In this document: positions 248 through 17,000 of the stretch, piece by piece | How the letters are laid out: each line of letters starts with the position of its first letter | Numbering within the stretch: position 1 is the first letter of the stretch | Assembly (NCBI GenBank): GCA_030562195.1 | Contig: JAUJPP010000007.1 | Coordinates: 2,418,001-2,482,000, forward strand | Length of the DNA stretch: 64,000 nt | Direction: 5' to 3' | DNA from: Nipponacmea schrenckii | Taxonomy: Eukaryota > Mollusca > Gastropoda > Lottiidae | Position numbers and translations under genes: made by a program | The notes under the pieces: model-generated | What the model saw: only the letters and a program-made list of their open reading frames with translations | What the model was told of the DNA's origin: nothing | Database searches by the model: none

Positions 248-1655
248 ATACGCCCGCATGAAATGGGGGGTGTATATTGTCGTCACCCATGTCCGTCCGT
301 CGGTTCGTCCGTCCGTCCGTCTGTCCACAATTGCTCGTAAACACTCTAGAAGGCACAATTCTTGACGGATATGAGTGTTTATGATCACGCAAGGATAAAC
401 ACTATTGAAAATCAGCGAAATCAGAAAAAAATTAGTTTGAGTTCTTGCCCTTATCCTTGAATGGCTCGTAAACACTCTACAATGTGCAATTCTTCATGGA
501 TAGCCCTTGAAAACGCGTTCAATTCAGAAAAAATAATTTTTAATGGATTTGACAAAACCCAAGGAGGAACCCTGTTGAAAATAAGAAATATCACAAAATA
601 TGTAATATGAATTATTGCCCATGTTCTTTGAAACGCGTTCATTTTTTGGATCGTAAATACCTTTCAAGGCACAATTCTATACAGATTTTGATGAATTTTG
701 TTGAAATTGTTTGTTATCATCCAAGAGTGGACCCTTTTAGTAACCAAAATACTGAAAAATATTTAATGAGTTATGGTCTTGTTTATAGGTATAATTCTTG
801 ACAGATTTTAATGAAACTTAAGAATATTGTACATTTATCAATACATGATTGAAGGTTGAATATTTCATTTTTTATTCATAAGCAATGCTACCAGTGGGCG
901 TATAATATCTTGCCTGGCAATCTACTTTAGTTATTGTCCTTAACCTTGTAAGATTGCGTCAAAATTTTATTGTAGGTGCAATAGGAGCCACTATTTTCAA
1001 TGGATTTTGATGGAACTTGGTGTGAGCATTGGAATTGATAAGGCGGCGGTCAAGTTCGAATTTGACGATTTTTTTTTTTGATGAACAGTTTTTGAGTGAT
1101 TTCCCTTGACTTAGTAAAATGTTGACAAAATTTTATTGTTTTTCAAAGGATTATGATGAAACTTGGTGTGAGCATTGGAATTGATTAGACCTCAGCCAAG
1201 TTTGAATTTGACAATTTTTCAATGAACGGTTTTGAGTTATTGCCCTTGACGTAGTAAAATTGCGTCAAAATTCTATTGTGGTTGCAATAAGAAGCTTCGG
1301 TTTTCAAAGGATTTTGATGGAACTTGGTGTAAGCTTCAGAATTGATAAGACAGTAGTCAAGTTTGAATTTGACGACTATTTTTAACGAATGGTTTTCGAG
1401 GTTTTTCCCTTGACTTAGCAAAATTGCGTCAAAAATTTATGTGGGTGAAAAAGAAACTTTTTTAATAGATTTGATGAAACTTGGTATGAGTACTGAAATA
1501 GATAAGATCGTGGTTAAGTTTGAATTTGAGTTTTTGACCTTGACTTCAATATTCAGTGAATAATTTTTCAGTTATTGCTCAATTTATTATTCAAATTCAA
1601 TGTTGCCAGTGAGCGTATGTTACCTTGCCTGCAGGCAAGCCTTCTTTTAAAATGG
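248..1655 (+). repeat. ATACGCCC-family interspersed repeat, full-length-like copy
   Basis: Starts with TACGCCCGCATGAAATGGGG, a short head hairpin, followed by GTCGTCACCC and a CGTCCGTC microsatellite. The body is made of diverged subrepeats of roughly 120 bases around CTCGTAAACACTCTA and GATTTTGATGAAACTTGGTG. It ends near GAGCGTATGTTACCTTGCCT. The same head, CGTC tract and tail recur in both orientations across the window. It is non-coding; short ORFs in it are chance. Confidence 0.8.
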
Positions 1656-1980
1656 AGGCGGCAAATGAATTAGTGGTGTCAGTGGTGCAAAATAAAATGT
1701 TGCTTTAAATGACAGACATGCAAACTATGAAAATGTCAAGTATGTTAAATAAGCAATTTATACTAGTGTTGGTGTAAGGTCTCATAACGACTAAATATGT
1801 TTAGTTGAAACTTCAATTTTGTTGGAGACAAATTTCTCGGTAACAGAAGTTTTCTCAACTTTCAGGTCAGCAAAGGAACACATTTCTTAAGAATTTGGCG
1901 TATAAGTCTAATAATGCCGCAAGAATGTTCGTCCGATGAAAAATAATTGAATGCCCTTTAAATGTAGTAATATTTTACAG
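1656..1980. other. Intronic sequence before the first visible PARP-like exon
   Basis: No intact gene. At 1653-1690 the words AANEL and V(V)SV resemble a worn macrodomain segment, but no splice sites or frame support it. A pyrimidine-rich acceptor (TATTTTACAG) ends at 1980. Confidence 0.4.
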
Positions 1981-2046
1981 GAGCTGTTTCGAAGGAGATA
2001 TATGAGGTTTATAAAGAAGATATTGATAAAAACAAATCGGCATCAG
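1981..2046 (+). CDS. PARP14-like: PARP14-like exon a: macrodomain, GGAVSK-type loop
   Basis: 66 bases between TTTTACAG and GTAAAA. It encodes AVSKEIYEVYKEDIDKNKSAS after a Gly codon split with the missing upstream exon. This matches the glycine-rich loop and following helix of macrodomains (GG-V-x-x-x-I), part of the ADP-ribose pocket. It ends in phase 1 and its final G completes GAA with the next exon. The exon is short, so identity rests mainly on the perfect phase fit and on sequence continuity with the macrodomain strand in the next exon. Confidence 0.75.
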
Positions 2047-5000
2047 GTAAAATAATTTATCAATCATATTTGTGACTAACTTGCTAATTGCAGTAAGTTT
2101 CATTATAATAGACCAGGCCTTCTCAAGATAATTTCCGAAGCACCACTTTTGTCAAAATAGTGAACAAGAAGCGCCAGTTATCGATTCATTTTGTAGGATG
2201 TTATTGGAGAGGTTAAGCAGTAAAATTGCGTTTCTAGGAATTATTATGTGGGGAGGGGCAAGTAGTGGTCACAGAATTGTCGATGAGGGATAGCGATACA
2301 TCTGACGATAGGCCTACACTTACAATAGTTAAGTCGGGGAGGTCGAAAACTCGGACTTCTCGGAATCCTAGGATTGTCGAATCCTATTGTCGGAGACCAT
2401 CGAAAATTGTCGATTTAACAGGTGAGAAATAATTTGCTACGTGGACTCTCCGAAAAGGTAGGCATATTGACACGCAAAGAATTGTATCAAATGTTTTCTC
2501 GTTTGTGATGTCATGTTATTGGGATTTTGGTATTATGTTGACTGGAGTTAGTTGTTTCCGTTCTTCATGCGGATGATTAGTTAAATATCTGCTCACAACT
2601 TAATAGTTGCATTTAGACGTTTTCTGCTGTCAATCATTAATGACCCGCGTAGCCACGAGACAGGTAGAGGGTCAGCTATAGCCCATGATCGTAAGAATTA
2701 TAATGTTACAAAATACCCATAACAGCTAAAAAAAAGTATTACAAGCAGTCGCTGCCACGGCATTCACAGTTTTGACAAACCACTCTGATACCCTTTATGA
2801 AATATTGTTTATTTTCGACATATAGAGCTTAAAAAGATAGCAAGGCAAGGTAAAATACGCCCACTGGCAGCAATCTTTACCTAATAACAAGGAACGAACT
2901 CATTAAATATTTTTTGGTATATTTGATGTTCAATAGGGTTCACCCTTGGGTGATAACAAACTATTTCCACCATTTTCATCAAAAACCATAAAGAATTGTG
3001 CCTTGTAGAGTGTTTACAAGCCAAAAATCGAAATATTTTTAAAGAACAAGGACAATAATTCATATTTTAACAATTTCAGTGACTTCTGTCAAAATCTGTA
3101 AAGAATTCTGGCTTCTAGAATTTTTACGAGTTAAAATTTTGACTCGTTTAATAAACAAGTGCAATAGATGATACTAACTATTTTTGGATTTATCTGATTT
3201 TCAATAGGGTTCATCCTGGGGTGATAACAAATACTCTAACCAAGGTTTATCAAAATCCTAAAAGAATTGTGCCTTGTAGAGTGTACGAGTCAAATATCGA
3301 ACGCATTTTAAAGAACAAGTGCAACAATTCATATTAAAAATATAGGGTTCACCCTTGGGCGATAATAAACATTTACAGCAAGTTTCGTAAAATTTGTAAA
3401 TTTGTGCCTTGAAGAGTGTATAAGAGCCAAAAATCGGACGCGTTTTAAAGATCAAGGGCAATAATTCATATTAAATATATCTTGATATTTTTATTTTTCA
3501 ATAGGGCTCATCTTTGGGTGATATCAAACAATTTCAGCAATTTTCGTTAAAATAGGTCTAGAATTGTGCCTTCTAGAGTATTTATGAACCAAAAAATTGA
3601 ACGCGTTTTCAAAATCAAGCCCTTAGGCCCAATATACGTCAGATTTTTGTCGCGTTAAAGGGATAATAGGCGTTAGAATACACTCGACCTATGGCTTCTA
3701 TTTGTGTTTAATATTGACTATTAGTTAAATAAGTATGCATCCCGCACTTTACCAAATTTTAAAAAGCGACAATAAAAATATATACGGAATTTAAAAAAAA
3801 AGTGAGCCAGCGACGATTCCATTCAGTTTGAGAATAAAAGCGTAGGGTAAATCAACGCTAAAACATCATTGTGCAATTCAATAGTAGGGGTCAAGGACGC
3901 GTGAAAACCCACATGTTAGAGTTACTTCACTTTATATTTACACAATTTGAAAATCGCTGAATGGAAGTATTAAGCGTTTTATAACTAACTACTTGATTTT
4001 GTGGATTTATCCGATAATAGAGGGATTTTGATGTATAGTTATGACACCAGGTAAGTCCACTGATCGGGAATATACTGTAATTTGAGTGAAATTAAATTTT
4101 TATGTTCTTTCTCACGCATATTATCCCTTTTAGTGAAAAGAATTTGAGATGTTTTAATTAAGTCCAATAAAATCCGACAAAAGCTTTGCGAATAAATCCA
4201 AAAACACCAGTCGCTTCAGACTGAGTCGAATTTTAAGAAGATTTGACACTCTAAGTCGAATAATTCGTCAAAAAAGCGACATAAAAAGTCTTGATTTATA
4301 CGTCCGATTTTTGTCGAATCGTAGCAGAAAGATAGCTTACCAGGCAAGGTAATATACGCCCACTGGCAGCATTGATTTTGAATAAAAAATGAAATATACA
4401 TATACATATACTTCTTTTCTTGGGTGATAAATGTACAATATTACAAAGTTTCCTTAAAATCTGTCAAGAATTATACCTAATAAAAAGGCAATAAGATTTT
4501 CAGTATTTTTTATTGTTAAAAGGATTCACTTTTGGGTGATAACAATCGATTTAAACAAAATTCATCAAAAACCGTAAGGATAAACGAGCCAAAAACCGAA
4601 CGCATTATAAAGAACACGGGCAATAATTCATATTAAATATTTTGAGATATTTCTTGTTTTCAATAGGGTTCATCCTTGAATGATAATTAAAAATTGCAGC
4701 AAGTTCTGTCAAAATATGTAAAGCATTGTGTCTTCTGAAGTGTTTACAAGCTAAAATGTTGAAGCTTTTTCAAAAAACAGAGCAAAAACTGATATTAAAT
4801 ATTTTAAGATTTATCTGATTTTCAATAGGGTTCATCCTTAGGTGATTACACATGCTCATGCCAAGTTCCGTTAAAATTAGTCAAGAAATGTGACATGCAT
4901 AGTGTTTACGAGCCAAAAATCGAAATCGTTTGAAAGAACAAGGGCAATCAAATATTATGTGATATTTCTTGTTTTCAATAGGGTTCATCCTTGAATGATA

Positions 5001-8000
5001 ATTAACAATTTCAACAAGTTTTGTCAAATCTTTAAATCATTGTGCATTGTAGAGGGTTTACAAGATGAAAATTTGGAGGCTTTTCCAAATACAAGGGCAA
5101 TAAAACTAATTCTAAATATTTTTCGATTTTCAATAGGGTTCATCCTTAGGTGATTACAAATACTCATGTCAAGTTACGTCCAAATCTCTCAAGAATTGTG
5201 ACTTGTAGAGTGTTAACAAGGCAAAAATTGAACACATTTCATAGAAAAAGGGCAATAAATCGTATTTAATCTATTTCGATATTTTTGATTTTGAATAGGG
5301 TTCATCCTTTGATGATATTAAGCAAGTTTTGTTAAATTGGTCAAGAAATGTGCTTTGAAGAGTGTTTAAGCCAAAAATTTAACGCATTTTCAAAAACTAG
5401 GGCAATAACTGATACAAACTATTTTTCGATTTAACTGAATTTCAATAGGGTTCATCCTTAGGTGATAACAAACCCTCAAGCCAAGTTTTGTCGTAATCGG
5501 TCAAGAATTGTGACTTGTAGAGTGTTTACAAGACAAAAATCGAACGCATTTTAAGTAACAAGGGCAATAATTCATGTTGAAGGGGCACAGTCTTGATTTG
5601 TTTCGGACAATCATGCGACAGCCTCAAACACATGAAATCTTTTGTTTAGCTAATCAGAAATAGTCTACAGAGCTTACCTTTGAAATTTGAGCCTTCAAAT
5701 CCATGGGTATACATATTTATCCGTGTTTGAAAATCATAATGTCTTAAGATATTATGAACGTCCCGTCATATTGGAAAATCAAAGAGTTATAAATAGACTA
5801 CTGCGCAGGCCCACACTGATAAAACAAAAAGAAAGTACATGAAATAACAATTGTAGATTTTGTCAACAGGACACACAATTTTCAGACTGACTGGAGACCA
5901 GCCGCGTACAGCACGGAAAAAAATAAAAAAGTGAAATTTTTGAGGTATATTTCAAGGTATTTTGCGATTTTCTTAGAGCTTGAGTATTTCTGAGGACTGT
6001 TTAAATGTAACAAAGGCCCAAAACGACCCCTAAAAATCAAGATTGTGCCCCTTTAAATATATTTCGATATTTTTTATTTTCAAAAGGATGATATTAAACA
6101 ATTTCAGCAAGTTTTGTCAAAATCGGTCAATAATTGTGAAAAAAATTTGAACGCGTTTCCAAAAACAAGGGCAATAACTGATATTAAATTTTTTTTGATT
6201 AAAAATGGTTTTCAATAGGCTTCATCCTTGGGTGATAACAAATACTCAAGCCAAGTTTCATCAAAATCCATTAAGAATTGTTCTTTCAAGAGTGTTTACA
6301 AGCTAAGAATTGAACGCGTTTTCAAGAACAAAGGCAATAACTCATACTAAATATTTTTTGATTTCGCTGATTTTCAATCCTTGAGTAATAACATACTCCC
6401 ACACCAAGTTTCATAAAAATCATTCAAGAATTGCACATTGTAGAATGTTTACGAGCCATTCAAGAACAAGGGCAAGAACTCATAGGCTACTTAGTTTTTT
6501 TCCGATTTTGCTGATTTTAAATAGGGTTCATCCTTGCGTGATCATGTATCAAGTTTCATCTAAATCCGTCGCTAATTGCACCTTCTAGAGTGTTTACGAG
6601 CAATTGTGGACGGACAGACGGACGGACATGGGTGACTACAATATAGCCCCCCCCCCCATTTCATGTGGGCGTATAAAATTTGCACTCGGTTACAGATTTC
6701 AGTCAGTATGCGCATGCTCATAACTACTAAAGTCGTTTCCGGGGTCAACAAATACAACCGCCCATATGAAATGGCGGGGGGGGGGCGTATATTATCGTCA
6801 CCCATGTCCGTCCGTCTGTCGGTCCAAAAATTGTAAAAGTTCAGGGTCATTGAAGGTCAAGGTCATTTGATATAGCCTTTTAATTTTTTTTAAAATTCAA
6901 TCCGGCTTAAAAAAAAATTAAATTTGAAAATGAAAATTCTGTTCACTACAAATTTTAGATAAAGTAACAAGGTTTCAAAAAACACCAAAATCGTACAAAT
7001 CGAAAATTCTACTTGAAAAATTCAGGGTCATTGAAGGTCAAGTCATTTGATTTGGCCTTTTGAATTTTCAAAAAAATTCAATCGGGCATTAAAAAAATTT
7101 AAATTTGAAAATCAAAATTCTGTTCCCAACAAGTTTTAGATAAAGTAACAAGGTTTCGAAAAACACCGAAATCGGACAAATCGGATAAAAATTAGCGGAC
7201 TTATTAAAATTTTGCTAAATGTCACCGTTCTGTGATAACACATAAAATTTCACTTCCGGTTCGAATTTTTTCCTCCAATTGGGTTCTAATTATGCCTGAT
7301 AGTTTATATGTATAGCTTTTGTACTCATTTCTTACATACACCGGAGGTTGGGTCACCCAACGTGGTTTCTGAAAAACCGGAAGTTCTCACGGACAAACCG
7401 GAAGTGGTAGAAAAAATCTTATGAAAACAAAGAGTGACAAAAATTTGCCACTCAAAAAGCGAAAATACCCAATATTTCAATATAAAATTCGTCTAAAAAT
7501 ACACAAGTACACAGGCATCAAATGGACGATCTATGTTCCGGCGATCAAGTACATGACCACAAAATAAATATAAAATACTTCACGAACATTGACATAATAT
7601 ATAGTTCCCGCGGCCATGCATCCGACCGCCGAAAAACAAGCCCGCCCATATGCACCCGCACATTTCTAACACACCGCACACCGAAACGCCGTACACCCTT
7701 CACAGCCATGCACCCGAACGCCAGGAAATAGACATTATCTATTATCTCGGCGATCAAGCACACTACCGCAAAAACACATACAACACCACAATGTGCAACC
7801 CGTCCAAAACACACAAGCACACGTGCATAAAACGGACAAACCCACCCTTCGGCGATCAAGCCCACGACCGCAAAAACGATATATTATTTCAACGTACAAT
7901 TGTTTTAAAATACACAAGTACATGTGTATAAAATGGACAGATCTTTCTTCCGGCGATCCAGTACATGACCGCAAAAACTATATATCATTTCAACGTACAA

Positions 8001-11000
8001 TTCGTTTTAAAATGCCAAAAGAGTCAGTGCATGTGCTGCGAGCATGCTATCTAACCCTACCCCTTTTCCGCCTCCCAATTTAATAGGCCCCAGAACTCCC
8101 AGCAAAATTATCACTCTAGAAATAATCAGCAATGGCACCACAGCTCGCATCAAAATAATTATCACTTTAGAAATGATCAGCAATGGAACCAGCACTCTCA
8201 ACAAAATTGGAATCACTCTAGAAATAATCAGCAACGCCAGGAAATAGACATTATCTATTATCTCGGCGATCAAGTACACTACCGTAAAAACACATACAAC
8301 ACCACAATGTGCAACCCGTCCAAAACACACAAGCACACGTGCATAAAACGGACAAACCCACCCTCGGCGATCAAGCCCACGACCGCAAAAACGATATATT
8401 ATTTCAACGTACAATTGTTTTAAAATACACAAGTACATGTGTATAAAATGGACAGATCTTTCTTCCGGCGATCCAGTACATGACCGAAAAAAATATATAT
8501 CATTTCAACGTACAATTCGTTTTAAAATGCCAAAAGAGTCAGTGCATGTGCTGCGAGCATGCTATCTAACCCTACCCCTTTTCCGCCTCCCAATTTAATA
8601 GGCCCCAGAACTCCCAGCAAAATTATCACTCTAGAAATAATCAGCAATGGCACCACAGCTCGCATCAAAATAATTATCACTTTAGAAATGATCAGCAATG
8701 GAACCAGCACTCTCAACAAAATTGGAATCACTCTAGAAATAATCAGCAATATCCTGTAAATCCACAGCATCGAGTTAGCCAGAGTGCCGAAGCACCTATC
8801 ATACGTATGTTTTATCAAGTCTTACAGGCCCTTCACCATATGTCGCTCATTAAAAATCAACTTGAAGGTCGCCCATCTAAAAACTTTTTCCATAAAATCA
8901 AGGAACTTAACTACTTCATCAAACCAGCCATGAGAAACGACGTCATTACAAAAGTCATAAACACCATCAACCATTCTTGGGCTAAAAATATTCTAACTTC
9001 CTTAAGAGACCACTACGATTCTATGCTGAGCCAGAAAATCAATGCCATCAAGTCTCGCTCTTTCTCTGATTCTCGTATTAAGGAATTTTCTACCACAGCT
9101 ATCAATTGGGCTAAAACTAACTACAGGCGAAAATTGTCCGACGAAACGTTAAGAAAGTATTCTGACATCATTCGCAATATTGGTATTCCTGAAGATTCCA
9201 TGGACGTCACTGACACCATTGCAGTTGCTACTACTAACCGATACAACATCCCAACTAATAGCAACCAAACACCTAGTCGCAAACGTCGCCCTTCATCCTC
9301 GTCTCCAGACCCAGTCCAAGGTACACCTAGAAAGACTACAAAGATTTCTTCAACATCGAAACCTGTACCACTTATGTCTTTGACATTGCCTTCTACTTCC
9401 ATGCCTTCTACCAGTTATTCTTCTACAAATAACCGTTTCAACAACTTCTCATTTACTCCCACGTTTGCATTTGCTTCCAACCCTACAACTAGTGCCACTT
9501 CTTCTACTACATGTACTAACTTGTCTACCATACCCTCTACCAGCTCGTCGTCTATAGCCTCTATATACTCGTCTACCAGTTCGTCGTCTACGGTTACTAT
9601 CAGTACTTCATCCATATCTTCTACCTCCTCTTCTACCATGCCCTCTTCCAGTTCGTCGTCTACGGTTTCTGTTACCACTTCATGTATACCTTCTACCTCG
9701 TCTACCATTACTTCCACTGTTTCGTCTACCATTATCCCTGTCATTCCTTCTACCAAACCAACCCTTCCCTCTAATAGTTCTTCATCCAAATCTTCCCCTT
9801 CATCTCCCAATCTAGCTATTCCATCTACCAACAGTTCTCTCCAATCTTCATCTCAACCATGTTCACCTCTTTTAACCTCTTCTCCATCTCCTTCCCGACA
9901 ACCATCTTCGCAGAATTCTAAATCTTCTCGACGTAAAATAGATTATGATCCCAAACCACTACCAAGTCGTCACGCCAATCAAAACAAAGACTCGTGGACA
10001 TTTCCTACTGTTTCTAAACCAGTCTTAATCCTAGGATCGTCTAACCTCAATCGCATAGATAGAACTAAAATCAAGCCAGATACCCAAATTGAGTCTTATC
10101 CAGGAGCCAAGATAGACCACTTAATCCAGATTATTAAGAAATACCAAATTCAGAGACCATCTAACAGCATTGATCCTGAGCACATCATTTTTCATGTCGG
10201 ACTTAACAACAGAAGTGAACCCGCAGAAACCATCCTGAAAAAAATGTCTAATGTTATTTCTTTAGTTACTTCTTCATTTCCAAACTCTCTTCTCTACATT
10301 TCCCACATACCTACAGCCCATTCTTTCCAACTTAAGAACAAAACAGACAGCAAAAATCTGGAGAGATTTAATAATATGATCATCAACAGTCCTCCACCAA
10401 ATACCACTATCATTCCTCCAGCCAATACAATCATCAAAGTCAGAGGCGATGATATCCACTGGACACCAATAACAGCTCAATCCATCTATAGCCACTGGAT
10501 GGACTTCATCACAGCTTCTTCAGCACCTTTAAACTAGATGCGGGGGGTCCCAATACTAGTCTCCAGCTTGGAAAAACAGTTGTCAACCTAAGTTCAAGAA
10601 TTCTCTCTCCAAATGAACAAAAACTACTAGATAAAGGTCTTAAATTCGTACCCTCTAAAAAACCTTCATCACGTATACCATTAGTGGAAGCCACTAAAAG
10701 ATTTCAGAGAAATTTAAAGTTGAACTATTTCTATAGAAACACGCCTTCTCGTGGTCCGATCACCAAGTTTGTAGAAAAATCAAAATTTACGCCTGCTGAT
10801 AGCTGTATGCACAAAGAAATTTTAGATACCTTTCAGGAAATGGATAATGAAGTATCTCGTTTGCCTATCGTAAACGAGAAAGCCAACCTCTCTCATGCGG
10901 AACGTACTGCTTTGAACGCTCTAAAGAAAGACAAAAATATTGTTATCAAGAAAAGCGATAAGGGAAGTTGTTGTGTGATCTTGAATAGGCAGGATTATGT

Positions 11001-14000
11001 CAATGAAGCCGAATCACAATTAAGTAACCTTGAATATTACACTCCTTTAGACAATCCGATTTACATGGAAACTACCAAATTAATAACAAATATTTTGAAA
11101 GATTTACTTGATAAAGACTACCTTAAACCAAAGCAATTTGATTATCTGAAGCCCGACAAAGAGCCCCGTCAAAGACATTTGTACACCCTTCCGAAAATCC
11201 ACAAAAATCCCGAAAATGAGTGGTTTTCACCCAATAAAATTCCCAAAGGACAGCCAATAATATCTGACTGTGCAAGTGAGTCTTATAGGGTCTCAGAATA
11301 TATAGATCACTTTTTACTGCCACTAGCTTCAACACATCCTGCCTATATTAAAGACACAAACGACTTCGTTGAGAAGATTAAAACGCTTAAAATCCCAGCA
11401 GATGCCTTATTAGTTTCTTTAGACGTTCAAAGCATGTATACTAGAATTGACAATGAGTCTGGATTGCGCGCTGTAAAGCAAGCATTCGAGCGGAAGCCCG
11501 ACCCTGATAGACCGGATAAAGAAATCCTAGAACTGTTAGAAATTTGTTTGAAACGGAATGACTTTATTTTTAATGAAAAAATTTATCTTCAGGCTTCAGG
11601 AACTGCCATGGGAAAACGATTTGCTCCCTCCTATGCAAATATTTTCATGGCAGAATGGGAAAGAGAGGTATCACTTCTCTGCCCAAGACTACCAATTTTT
11701 TATGTACGATTCCTTGATGATATTTTCTTAATTTGGACTCATACGATTGACGAATTTTGGGAATATTTTAATATTCTCAATAACCACCACCCATCTATAA
11801 AATTAACCTCCAATATTAGCGAAAAGCAAACTGATTTTCTGGACACTACAGTTTTTAAAGATACCAATTTTCATGAAACCAATCAATTAGATATTAAAGT
11901 TTTTTTCAAGCCCACCGACACACCAACTTTTATTCAAATCGTCTTTTCATCCGAAACATACTTTTTCTGGAATTATTAAGTCACAAATCTTGAGATTTCA
12001 CCGAATTTGTACGCGTAAAGAGGACTTCGAGGAGGCTTGTTCTATTGTCTTTCAAAAACTACGCGAACGCGGCTACTCAAGAAGATTCTTGAGAAGTATC
12101 AAAAGTTCCACATTAGCTGAAATCTCAGCTAAAAACGACTCGAACCTTTTACCATTACCAAATTCTTCTGTTCATCCATGTAATACAACCCGCTGTCAAA
12201 CATGTCCCTTTATTTTGCCCACTGATTTTTTTAAAAATACACGTACAGGTGCAATTTTTCAAGTTAATGACAAACTTGTTGTACCAGCAGTAACATCATT
12301 TATCTTATCTCCTGTACAAGATGTAGCCAACAATACGTCGGCGAGACAATGAATTCGTTAAGGGTTCGCTTTAATCATCACCGATCTGACATCAACCTCA
12401 AAAAAAAACAAATAAAACAGTATCTAAACACTTTAACCAATCCAATCATCAATTAACAGACCTAAAAATTATTCCAATAGAACAGATATATGAACAACCT
12501 GGTATGAATACTAAGAAAGTTCGATTAATTCGTGAAAACTTTTGGATTAACAAATTACAAACCATGCATCCGTTCGGCATGAATATCCAAGTAGACTTTC
12601 AGATTATACCCTTGGTTATTCAATACAATAGTACAGCTGGTCAAGTTCCTCGTATAATTATCCACCTCTACAAACAATTGCAAGAAAAATTCCCAACAGT
12701 TTTTACAAACGATTTAGTTGTCGCCTATACCCGAAATAAAAATTTAAATGATATCTTAGTCCGTGGTAGATTACCTCTCCTTTCTTAGATTCATTTCTTT
12801 TCTCCTTATTTCTGATGTAACCACTATCTATAGAGTGCCTTTCCTCGTCATTATCTTCAACATGCTTTAAGGCTATGTCCCTTTTCTCCCTTTTTTCCAT
12901 TAAACTTTTCATTTTCACAAGTAAAAAACATTTATTATAATTGATATTCCTTTGATATTAATGTTCCTGTGGGAACCAGTAGTATTTTTTTACATTTCAG
13001 ATTATAAAGATTATAGATGATTACTTGAACTTTTCATTCCATTTTTTTTTTTTGCACAACTGCACATACAATTCCTTATCACTGGAGGTAATGCCTACAT
13101 GCCTGTGCCTGTGCTTTCGTAACATTGCTTTACCGCAATGTTACAACCTACAATCCCTACTCCATGTTATGTTCTTATTTTGTTATGGATAGGGGGAATA
13201 TTTGTCCATGCTCAAGACCAGCTTTAAGGATGTTTACTCATCAACCGACAGCAATAATTTAGATTTTCAAAATCGTTCATGTTTAGGCCAAAATAGAATC
13301 GTTGGTTAAAAAATATGTGATACACCTGAGGGAAAGGGAAAAATAAAATTAATAATTTACTTGAATCATTAAATCATGGAGAAACACAATGATTAAGATA
13401 GTTATTAGTAAGGAGGCCTATAGTTCAAAATATGGACAAATGTAAGAAAAGGAACATGAACATTGAGAAGGTAAGGTAAGGTGACAGGAAATATGCTTAT
13501 GCTAGGGAAAGATTACCAAGAATCATCCTTCGGAAAGTTTTAAAATCTGATGCTGATTTGAAATTTTCGTCCAGATCATTCCATAAAATTGGTCCTTTGT
13601 ATTGGATACTTTGTTTAATCATATTGATTCGTGGTTTTTGCACCACAAGTTTTGAATTTATGCTAGAATAAGCCGTCTGTTTATAGGGAGCTGGTTGTCA
13701 GCTTCCGTTTCGACAGTGAATTTAATTCGGTTTTCTTTGCTATTGCTATTTCTTTGCTATTTGCAGTTGTTGGCGGTCATCAGAGTCCTTAAGTATGACG
13801 AAGGTGTCATCAACTTTCCGGAACCAGCAGATTGGTCTTATTGGTGATGTTCGAAGAGCATTTTCCTCAAACTCATACACTTCTGATTTCACTGGAGAGG
13901 GGAGTTCCCATTAGTAAGCCATGTACCTGTTCATAAAGATCGCCCCCCTCCCAAACTGAAATAAATGGAGTTAATGGAGTTGATGGTGGCACGGGCATAG

Positions 14001-17000
14001 GGCGGACGTGGGTTGGATGGTTTAAGCTGTTGATTGGTGATTTCATTGTTCTGAGCTAGGGTTCCAAGAAATTCGTTGTTGGAATTGTTTAGAGATGTTG
14101 CTGGGTCCTTATGCGGCGATAGGTTGTGGTATCTTTCAGGAGATTGTTCACTCTCAGTAGAAAACCATCCTTGTTCATAAGTACTTTAGACTATACTCTG
14201 TCAGCTGGAAGGATTTCGTTGTCCATTTAGCACATGGTAATATTTATTTAGCATTTTGGCTAACATTTCGCATTTCATAATTAGTAATTCGCATTATGCC
14301 TCACTGGCTTTCCATAAAATTTAACAAATCTGACTTACATTCGCTTTAGGCTATTAAAACGTGTCTGATGTGCGATAACGGTAAAGATTGAGATTGAGAC
14401 TCAGGTTCAGATTATGTAGTTGCCCTTTAGGCAACACACTTTCTATAGCTGCTAAGACACCACCGAACATTGATCAGTGCCATGGTAACGTTATTTATTT
14501 CATATCGAAATAAATACTTTTATCGTCGGAACATCGATAAAGACAAAACACAATTGAATTGAATTCTTGAATCTTATTAAGGTTGGCGTTGAAGAACGCA
14601 GCTATAGAATTTATGTTACACAAATGAGTTGTCACCGACCTAAATGGTATATGTATATGGTGTTCGATATTTGCGATATCTTGATTCATTGAGGCAAAAC
14701 TTAGTTTAATATTGATAAACATATATGAATAACATGAGTATACATCGGACATTGTCCACCTGAAGGTTCCTTATACTCAAGGGGAATCACTCTTAATAAT
14801 GATAAAGAAGAACCAGACCACTAGTATTATTGTCTATGTGATTGAGTCTATTGAATATCCAACATAATGGGCGAAAATGCATATTTTGAACTCTGTTCGG
14901 TCTCAGGCGTTCAGTAAATTAATGTTTCTATAGAATATTTGATGTTCAAAAACAATAAGCCCCCTTTCATCTTCTCGATATCTATTTATCCGTGTTGTTG
15001 TTGTAACTTTGTTTCCTATGTATACTTATGGTTCCTTCTTGTTTATACTCATTATACTCCTGATGACGGTGTGAGAACCACATTGAAACGTCGAATAATA
15101 ATAAATATTCTAGAAGTGTTCATCCATAATAATTATTTTTATTTATATTTTACATGGATAACAACTTAGGTTCACATTTCGCCGTGACAGGGATCCCTTC
15201 TATCAGCTGGTCCTTGGCCGAACCTCTTGGCATTGATCTTTTATGGATTATCCGTACCAATTAACAGTTGGGTGGACTGAAATCATGAGTGAAGAGGACT
15301 TTTTCAAGGTCATCGAAAATCTCACTATTCATGATGATTATAGATATGAGAAACAAAATCTCACTATTCATGATGATTATAGATGTGAGAAACCAAATCT
15401 CACTATTCGTGATGATTATAGATGTCAGAAATAAAATCTCATTAGTCATGATCAAAGATGTATATTTTCTGCAAGTTTCAATAACAAAAGTACTTTCACA
15501 AATCAACATTTGTATTTTTGTCATTTTGGAAATTTTTATTGCCATCGAAACCTCATATAATACAGCTCATTGTGTCCAAATTATAGACCTACCTTAATTT
15601 GTCAAAACTTTACAAGACGTCATTTATTTGAAAACTATGGATAGCTTATCATTCACCCTCAATATGATTGCTTCATTAATGCTGATTTGTGATTTAAATG
15701 CTATTTGAATGGATTCATTCTAAATATTTAACATAAACGTTCTTTTTGGAACTTTATGTTATTAACCTTCTCCCAAGCCAACATGACTTGAATAATATGT
15801 GGAAGATAAGATTTTTATTTCTCTGTTAAGATCATATGCTTATTTTTTATCCATGACTTTTGGATGACCACTCATTTGATATTGCAGAATCAGATATGGT
15901 TGATTATGGAATTACAGTAACACCTACTAGAAGATCAAACATCCTTTATATTATACATGTTGATGCTGGTAGATATAATGATAATTGGAAAAAGGCAGTA
16001 TGTCTCTGTTTAAAAAGAGCAGATGATCTAAAACAAAATTCAATAGCTTTTCCGGCTCTTGGATCAGGTAAGTCTATTAGCTTTGTCGGTAAATTGTGTA
16101 TTGTATTACATGGTCATAAAACTTAGTAACCCATTCAACTACGTAAATGATTTTGATTTTGGGAAAGGGAGGGATTGATTATCCCAGATACACGGACCTT
16201 GGGTGGAACCATAGAGTTATAATAAGAACTATAGAGTCCACACTGACGTCATTAAACGTTAGTGGTATCGTAACGTCACTGTGCCGACTATGGAGAGCGG
16301 CCGCAAAATAAAAATAAAACACACTTTTGCTTGATAAAAAAAATCCGTTAGTAAAGGTATATAGACATGTAGAAATATGTTTTGATATGTTAAAGGTGGG
16401 AAATACCAATGTCCTACGCCTACCTATGGAATTATCGATAGGTAGGCCTATAGATATTATATAAAAAGATCAGCATCGGACAAATAACGGACACAGTTCC
16501 TAGTCTATTCACATCTTAAAGGCTAAATATTTTAATTCCTAATTTCGGATTTTTAAATATTTTTGAATTTTTAGTAATAGATATAATTATGAAGACAAGT
16601 TATAGGCCTATACGTCATGTGCATGCTAATTCTATAATTCAGACCGGTCATTTGAGTATAATGTTTAAAAAATCTTAGTTCATAAAAATATATCAACCTA
16701 TTTGGAATCCAAAAAAGGCCTACTATGGGGATGATCAGTCAGTTGTCCGAACTACAGCCAGAATTCAGTCGTCAAAACACCAATATCGATGATATGATTA
16801 ACAATGCTACTTTATTATCAATGATATGCCTTTTACCAGTCTAGGCCTTGCAAGGAGTCTAGGCCCGTTTATATTATTATTATTAACGCACTGTCACTGG
16901 AGTTTAATAATTATCGATCAGTTAAAAGTCTGTAGATCCATCTGAAAATAACAGATACTGGGCCTAGGCCATTCCATATGCTATTTTATCTCGTTTATCA

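What the first reader, a model, noticed from the sequence alone, without database searches (positions are those of the whole stretch)
10492..10600. Penelope-like element with a textbook -1 frameshift site exactly at the ORF1 stop
TTTAAAC occurs in the correct register as the last seven bases before the ORF1 TAG. The RT frame is -1 to ORF1, opens only 46 bases upstream, has no ATG before 10807, yet already encodes the conserved RT leader (NLSSRILSPNEQ...). So RT is best explained as an ORF1-RT fusion made by -1 frameshifting, giving a Gag-Pol-like ratio in a Penelope-like element. I am not aware of a described TTTAAAC/stop arrangement joining an SGNH ORF1 to a Penelope-like RT.
Basis: partly seen in the sequence, partly recalled or inferred. 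Interest (0 to 1): 0.92.

Follow-up and report, generated by a model that had tools for sequence, protein, structure and literature searches.

The report
Frameshift site in Penelope-like retrotransposons
A decayed jumping gene, probably in a mollusc genome, carries a ribosome-slippage signal where its first gene overlaps its copying-enzyme gene, and many related elements show the same signal or its trace, which suggests that this poorly understood class of jumping genes makes its copying enzyme by frameshifting, much as retroviruses do.

Summary
TTTAAAC lies at 10528-10534 in the ORF1 register (U_UUA_AAC), directly before the ORF1 TAG. The reverse transcriptase (RT) frame is -1, overlaps ORF1 by 46 nt and has no ATG before 10807. 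It is the only in-register X_XXY_YYZ heptamer in 656 ORF1 codons. The copy is dead (its RT-endonuclease part changes frame three times), so it proves nothing alone. Relatives decide. (1) A tandem element with both ORFs open (L001, RT 45% identical) has TTTAAAC in the same register and phase; its RT frame has no Met until residue 392 of 765. (2) Among 32 RT N-termini with a recognisable site, 21 read FKL (as TTTAAAC would), 2 KKL and 2 GKL (AAAAAAC, GGGAAAC, also strongly slippery); 7 read otherwise. (3) Of 60 ORF1 relatives, 56 reach the site and 55 read [HYN]WxxxLN there, the zero-frame reading of the same site, amid variable residues. ORF1 has an SGNH fold by prediction. SGNH ORF1s in Penelope-like elements are in print; I found no report of the frameshift. 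Only two cases are known here at DNA level, no stimulatory RNA structure was established, nothing was measured, and the host genome could not be searched.

The parts
7717..8138 (+). Upstream copy of a direct repeat (pseudo-LTR-like); ends in a copy of the start of ORF1
   Evidence: families D1 and D6, 98% identical, spacing 515-516; tblastn finds ORF1 residues 1-60 at 8055-8234, 100%
8233..8653 (+). Second copy of that direct repeat, running into ORF1
8570..10537 (+). ORF1 frame, 655 codons stop to stop; first ATG at 8807; Ser/Thr-rich middle, SGNH domain at the C-terminus
   Evidence: homologues P0121 and L001 ORF1
9959..10534 (+). SGNH/GDSL-type hydrolase domain of ORF1 (GSSN, GLN, DDIHW blocks)
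   Evidence: Model from a two-sequence alignment, mean pLDDT 73.9; best PDB match PAF-AH 1es9, E 1.8e-6; motifs
10492..10537 (+). 46-nt ORF1/RT overlap, RT in the -1 frame
10528..10534 (+). Slippery heptamer TTTAAAC, register T_TTA_AAC
   Evidence: the only in-register heptamer in ORF1
10535..10537 (+). ORF1 stop TAG, next to the heptamer
10492..11979 (+). RT frame (-1); homology to P0001 runs 10588-11922; no Met before residue 106 (nt 10807)
   Evidence: (RVT_1, E 1.5e-7)
11900..12773 (+). Remainder of RT and the GIY-YIG endonuclease region, split over other frames: this copy is broken
   Evidence: tblastn of P0001: 11900-12277, 12280-12411, 12411-12773 in changing frames

Best explanation
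The site is a decayed copy of a programmed -1 ribosomal frameshift signal of a two-ORF Penelope-like element. Ribosomes translate ORF1, a protein with an N-terminal variable region and a C-terminal SGNH hydrolase. Most stop at the ORF1 stop at or a few codons after U_UUA_AAC. A minority slip one base back on the heptamer (Leu-Asn codons UUA AAC re-pair as UUU AAA) and read on into the RT-endonuclease frame, giving an ORF1-RT-EN fusion at a low ratio, in the manner of Gag-Pol. The signal is old: it or its protein trace is kept across elements that are probably from mollusc and fish genomes and from many unnamed sources, with the first three bases apparently exchanged within the slippery class. 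Shown: heptamer, register, phase, overlap and absence of an early RT ATG in two elements; conserved protein signatures of the site in many. Inferred: that slippage occurs, its rate, and the fusion's role in RNP assembly.
For: Position and register. L001, a tandem element in a bacterial record: ORF1 1290-3140 and RT frame 3056-5353 both open, TTTAAAC at 3119-3125 in the ORF1 register, -1 phase, 85-nt overlap, with the first Met of the RT frame at residue 392 of 765. RT N-termini: of 120 listed homologues, 32 show a recognisable site by eye: FKL 21, KKL 2, GKL 2, other 7; FKL at residues 60-399 of the same proteins occurs once in 10,880 positions. [quoted passage not shown] The -1-frame shadow of ORF1 'HW' stands at a fixed distance before 22 of 31 sites with enough sequence: 11 as the full [SPTA]L[VADEG]xx (background 0.7%), 11 as M[VADEG]xx at the predicted start. 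ORF1 side: 56 of 60 homologues, the query's own record included, reach the motif and 55 of 56 read LN exactly four and five residues after W, while the three residues between vary. In the RT tree FKL occurs in five of six main groups, in one of them only as the window.
Against: Only two DNA-level cases (window, L001); the rest is read from proteins. The window copy has lost its coding continuity further down, and its ORF1 has ten residues between W and LN instead of three. No stable or unusual structure follows the heptamer in the window (z +1.67; pseudoknot scan 32 of 60 shuffles as good). L001 has a GC stem starting 6 nt downstream, but it is not beyond chance (z -0.35, 9 of 60). The nearest RT relative in the tree, P0003 (61%), and P0079 have long N-termini without a recognisable site. 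Seven of 32 sites are not XKL with X = F, K or G, and 9 of 31 lack the HW shadow at the fixed distance. Half of the shadow cases rest on M being a recoded TTG start. The tree rows were chosen for long N-termini and its deepest forks are weak (72/89). In-frame ORF1-RT fusions would have been too long for the database searches to return.
Confidence: 0.87

Rival explanations
1. RT is translated separately: by splicing that joins an upstream exon to the RT frame, by non-AUG or internal initiation, or by reinitiation after the ORF1 stop.
For: A spliceosomal intron inside a Penelope ORF is known in a rotifer (PMC3846280 passage). P0003 has a predicted start shortly upstream of the RT leader and no heptamer trace. 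No transcript data were available.
Against: In L001 the RT frame has no Met before residue 392. In the window the ATG right after the ORF1 stop (10538) is not in the RT frame. Neither idea explains why the overlap keeps FKL, KKL or GKL in one frame and LN in the other.
Confidence: 0.07
2. Coincidence in a dead copy: ORF1 and RT were once in one frame and an indel put them out of phase.
For: The copy has other frame breaks, and TTTAAAC is not rare in this window (22 on +).
Against: The same heptamer, register and phase occur in L001, whose two ORFs are open, and the protein signatures recur across the tree.
Confidence: 0.03
3. FKL and LN are conserved as protein motifs of RT and of ORF1, not as a slippery RNA sequence.
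For: The conservation is mostly read from proteins, and codons are unknown outside the two DNA cases. In 44 of 56 ORF1 relatives exactly four residues follow the LN position before the stop, so the tail itself may matter.
Against: Two different peptides in two frames are conserved over what would be the same bases. The substitutions F to K or G are not conservative for a protein but fit the X_XXA_AAC series (PMC5009743). The residues between W and LN vary freely.
Confidence: 0.03

Closest known systems
Canonical EN+ Penelope-like elements (Penelope/Poseidon), as described in PMC11167929
   Same: RT plus C-terminal GIY-YIG endonuclease; direct repeats at the 5' end like pseudo-LTRs; tandem copies (L001, 5441-bp spacing)
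   Different: That paper says canonical PLEs encode RT and EN in a single ORF (passage); here there are two overlapping ORFs with RT in the -1 frame
SGNH-esterase ORF1 proteins of CR1, L2, RTEX and some Penelope elements (PMC3905857)
   Same: SGNH domain in an ORF1 upstream of RT; that paper already reports the esterase in Repbase Penelope-like elements (passages)
   Different: 'Frameshift' does not occur in its main text; no overlap or slippery site is described in the passages seen
Gag-Pol -1 frameshifting of LTR retrotransposons and retroviruses (reviewed in PMC5009743)
   Same: Heptamer class, -1 phase, stop at or just after the site, enzyme as a minority fusion product (the last inferred here)
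   Different: Unrelated element class (kin of telomerase RT, passages); the upstream protein is esterase-like rather than Gag; the review's held text (300,000 of 475,107 characters) has no 'Penelope'
GDSL ORFs of bdelloid Athena/Terminon elements (PMC5408684, PMC6431247)
   Same: A GDSL/SGNH ORF carried by a Penelope-like element (passages)
   Different: Those are endonuclease-deficient giant elements with several extra ORFs; no -1 linkage is described in the passages seen

Membership tests
Penelope-like element (EN+) | Reverse transcriptase domain | tested here: met
   PF00078 E 1.5e-7; 44-64% identity to 21 relatives
Penelope-like element (EN+) | C-terminal GIY-YIG endonuclease | tested here: met
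   PF01541 in all five relatives scanned and in L001; the window's own fragments give no Pfam hit but align to that region of P0001 at 12280-12773
Penelope-like element (EN+) | Pseudo-LTR or partial tandem structure | tested here: met
   Direct repeats at 515-516 bp spacing; L001 tandem at 5441 bp
Penelope-like element (EN+) | Hammerhead ribozyme in the pseudo-LTR | tested here: inconclusive
   No Rfam hammerhead match at E up to 5 in window 5000-16000, nor at E up to 1 in L001; diverged variants could be missed
Penelope-like element (EN+) | RT groups with telomerase and PLE RTs; clade within PLEs | not tested
   No named PLE or telomerase reference was placed in the tree
Programmed -1 frameshift signal | X_XXY_YYZ heptamer in the upstream register | tested here: met
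   also L001
Programmed -1 frameshift signal | Downstream ORF in the -1 frame, open across the site, without its own early start | tested here: met
Programmed -1 frameshift signal | Evolutionary conservation of the site | tested here: met
   two cases at DNA level, the rest at protein level
Programmed -1 frameshift signal | Stimulatory stem or pseudoknot 5-9 nt downstream (distance recalled) | tested here: inconclusive
   Window: none beyond shuffles; L001: stem at 6 nt, not significant
Programmed -1 frameshift signal | Measured fusion product | not testable with these tools
   Needs a reporter or mass spectrometry
SGNH hydrolase (ORF1) | SGNH (flavodoxin-like) fold | tested here: met
   Foldseek to PAF-AH, E 1.8e-6, TM 0.68 by query, on a model of mean pLDDT 73.9; no Pfam SGNH hit for ORF1
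SGNH hydrolase (ORF1) | Catalytic blocks G-x-S, GxN, DxxH | tested here: met
   Window GSSN, GLN, DDIHW; L001 GDSN, GLN, DHLHW
SGNH hydrolase (ORF1) | Hydrolytic activity | not testable with these tools
   Needs an enzyme assay

The most novel reading that the evidence does not exclude
A whole, old and widespread branch of animal Penelope-like elements is built like a Gag-Pol element: an SGNH-esterase ORF1 stands in the Gag place, and RT-endonuclease is made only as a -1 frameshift fusion at a conserved X_XXA_AAC site, with X exchanged among T, A and G and with a fixed HWxxxLN end of ORF1. The branch would span molluscs, ray-finned fish and many unnamed sources, and its RT proteins in databases would often be cut short because gene callers do not know of the shift.
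Probability: 0.78. Interest if true: 0.8.

Novelty: new variant of a known kind. Interest (0 to 1): 0.72.

Why it matters
Penelope-like elements are treated as a third class of eukaryotic retroelements (PMC11167929, passage) and are kin of telomerase; how they make and assemble their proteins is hardly known. A conserved frameshift would mean that a defined minority fusion tethers RT and endonuclease to an esterase-like ORF1 protein, which gives a testable model of RNP assembly. It would extend -1 programmed frameshifting to a retroelement class where I found no report of it (searches; listings, and passages of 15 papers). It would also explain why many predicted RT proteins of this group lack a plausible start, and give simple signatures (ORF1 ending HWxxxLN, RT frame reading FKL) for finding intact, possibly active elements.

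Tried and rejected
Relatives in IMG/VR, phages and plasmids: none confirmed. Genome collection: two loci. L001 was used. L002 (29% identical RT in a cyanobacterial MAG record) was set aside after looking at its six-frame ORFs and bases 1301-1760: I recognised no SGNH ORF upstream; an A-run at 1503-1509 near the start of its RT frame was not analysed.

Structure after the heptamer: simple folds and a home-made H-type pseudoknot scan with rough stacking energies gave nothing beyond shuffles. Rfam: no hammerhead. A sequence search of the L001 SGNH region against PDB chains gave nothing up to E 1; only the fold comparison did.

A first regular expression for the RT leader matched nothing and a second missed 29 of 122 rows, so the sites were listed by eye from the printed N-termini; 86 of the 120 proteins were left out, by eye mostly because they start downstream of the site, and were not counted either way. 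P0003 and P0079 were kept as misses.

Literature: the 2021 paper on permuted-domain PLEs (recalled; DOI looked up) is not held, so its text was not seen. Fifteen papers were opened, as searched passages only, none whole; most papers in the listings were not opened. Three that hold both 'Penelope-like' and 'frameshift' were opened late: the frameshift passages shown there concern mutations or alignment, not programmed shifts (in PMC2678813 one of 13 places was not shown, and its single 'frameshift' was not among the passages shown).

Full report
What is there. The ORF1 frame is open from 8570 to the TAG at 10535-10537. TTTAAAC occupies 10528-10534 in the ORF1 register, T_TTA_AAC. The RT frame is open 10492-11979 in the -1 phase, so the two overlap by 46 nt, and its first Met is at residue 106, nt 10807. 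This is the only in-register X_XXY_YYZ heptamer among 656 ORF1 codons. The copy is dead: homology to P0001 runs on at 11900-12277, 12280-12411 and 12411-12773 in changing frames. Upstream lie direct repeats at 515-516 bp spacing that include the first 60 residues of the ORF1 frame, as expected of the pseudo-LTR layout of Penelope-like elements. The ORF1 frame has no ATG until 8807, so its start, or an upstream exon, is unknown.

Identity of the parts. The RT piece hits RVT_1 (E 1.5e-7) and has 1133 homologues at E up to 0.001, of which the best 120 were listed; 63 of these 120 (my hand count of the precomputed Pfam column) carry GIY-YIG, as do all five that I scanned. ORF1 had one homologue, a hypothetical Lottia gigantea protein (P0121), so the host is probably a limpet or another mollusc; this is an inference. 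A model of its C-terminal domain, made from two sequences (mean pLDDT 73.9), matches PAF-acetylhydrolase and other SGNH hydrolases (best E 1.8e-6), with GSSN, GLN and DDIHW blocks; Pfam gives no SGNH hit. That an SGNH esterase ORF1 exists in Penelope-like elements was already reported in 2013 (PMC3905857, passages).

The DNA test. The one scan of bacterial and archaeal genome contigs returned two loci. L001, a contig of an Epulopiscium single-cell record, holds a tandem Penelope-like element (5441-bp spacing; the second copy is cut by the contig end). Of the 12 named proteins among its ORF1 relatives, 11 bear fish names (one of these also a ferret label) and the twelfth is L001's own, so it is most likely host DNA in a bacterial assembly. 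ORF1 (1290-3140) and RT-EN (3056-5353) are both open. The sequence reads TAT TTA AAC TTC AAA GCC CCT TAA in the ORF1 frame, with TTTAAAC at 3119-3125 and the RT in the -1 frame. RT identity to the window is 45% in the best segment. The RT frame has no Met until residue 392 of 765, well inside the RT, so an ordinary AUG start cannot make this RT.

The protein test on the RT side. Gene callers sometimes extend the RT frame upstream through the site. Among the 120 listed homologues I found by eye 32 N-termini with a recognisable site: FKL 21, KKL 2, GKL 2, FFC 2, and FFL, FRI, LKL, VKL, FLV one each; P0003 and P0079 reach as far but show none. The other 86 were not counted either way. [quoted passage not shown] it also notes G_UU(A) of an arterivirus, which would read VKL (passages). 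Codons of these proteins were not seen. In a tree of 36 RTs, chosen for long N-termini, FKL occurs in five of six main groups (in one of them only as the window itself), GKL is sister to FKL in one pair (P0015, P0050), and the deepest forks are weak.

The frame shadow. In 22 of the 31 sites with at least four residues upstream, the site is preceded at a fixed distance by [SPTA]L[VADEG]xx (11) or by M[VADEG]xx at the very start (11), where M may be a recoded TTG. Of the 20 sites with at least five residues upstream, 11 show the full pattern (hand count). Read one base later, CAY TGG, this is His-Trp. At residues 60-399 of the same proteins the full pattern has a rate of 0.7%. It predicted that ORF1 proteins carry HWxxxLN near their end.

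The protein test on the ORF1 side. I then searched with the L001 ORF1 SGNH region: 60 proteins at E up to 0.1, one of them (P0122) from the L001 record itself. Four do not reach the motif (P0159, P0175, P0176, P0179). Of the other 56, 55 have L and N exactly four and five residues after W; the exception is P0172 with LG. The residue before W is H in 51, Y in 4 and N in 1. The three residues between are variable (commonest residue 19, 15 and 11 of 56), and 44 of 56 end four residues after the LN position (range 0 to 14). The window itself departs: ten residues stand between W and LN. These ORF1 relatives were found from the L001 side; the window's own ORF1 search gave only P0121, which lacks this region.

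Mechanism. The simplest reading is -1 programmed frameshifting: ORF1 protein as the main product, ORF1-RT-EN as a minority fusion. The overlap, the two-frame conservation, the choice of heptamers and the missing RT start fit together, and no other idea considered explains all four. A stimulator is not shown: the window's downstream RNA folds no better than shuffles; L001 has a GC stem 6 nt after the heptamer, but that too is within chance.

Limits. Two DNA cases only. The searches could not return in-frame ORF1-RT fusions, which would exceed the length window (at most 1.75 times the query). The host genome was never searchable (last try). The clade within Penelope-like elements is not assigned, because no named reference was in the tree.

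Novelty. PMC11167929 describes canonical Penelope-like elements as having RT and EN in a single ORF (passage). Searches showed me no report of programmed frameshifting in a Penelope-like element in the held open-access library; I saw the listings and passages of 15 papers. One search found one paper holding both 'Penelope-like' and 'ribosomal frameshift', and its passage is about Ty1. Papers outside that library, including the 2021 description of new PLE clades, were not seen, so prior mention cannot be excluded.

Noticed in passing
L001 and P0122: The 'hypothetical protein AN641_04890 [Candidatus Epulonipiscioides gigas]' is ORF1 of a Penelope-like element whose named relatives are fish proteins, so the bacterial record seems to contain host DNA.
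   Followed up: partly
L002 1492-3549: A contig of an uncultured cyanobacterium MAG record encodes a Penelope-type RT (29% identical), probably eukaryotic DNA in the bin.
   Followed up: partly
P0121 (Lottia gigantea LOTGIDRAFT_174980): The predicted protein joins the first part of ORF1 directly to a tail like the C-terminal end of the RT-EN protein, which looks like an internally deleted copy annotated as a gene.
   Followed up: no
window 8560-8603: At the start of the ORF1 frame there is CTAAC, a pyrimidine tract and AG, resembling a 3' splice site; ORF1 has no ATG until 8807, so its first exon may lie upstream.
   Followed up: no
L001 ORF1 relatives P0122-P0181: 44 of 56 end exactly four residues after the LN position, so the distance from the heptamer to the ORF1 stop also seems constrained.
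   Followed up: partly
window 15857-16126 (+): An 89-codon open frame matches a Macro domain (PF01661, E 5.9e-5), possibly an exon of a host gene.
   Followed up: partly
window 15278-15452: Four direct copies at 39-bp spacing.
   Followed up: no
window 6604-6829: 54-nt inverted repeat, 89% complementary, 118 nt apart, with long G and C runs.
   Followed up: no
window 5104-6542: Diverged repeats of 45-160 nt in several copies upstream of the element.
   Followed up: no
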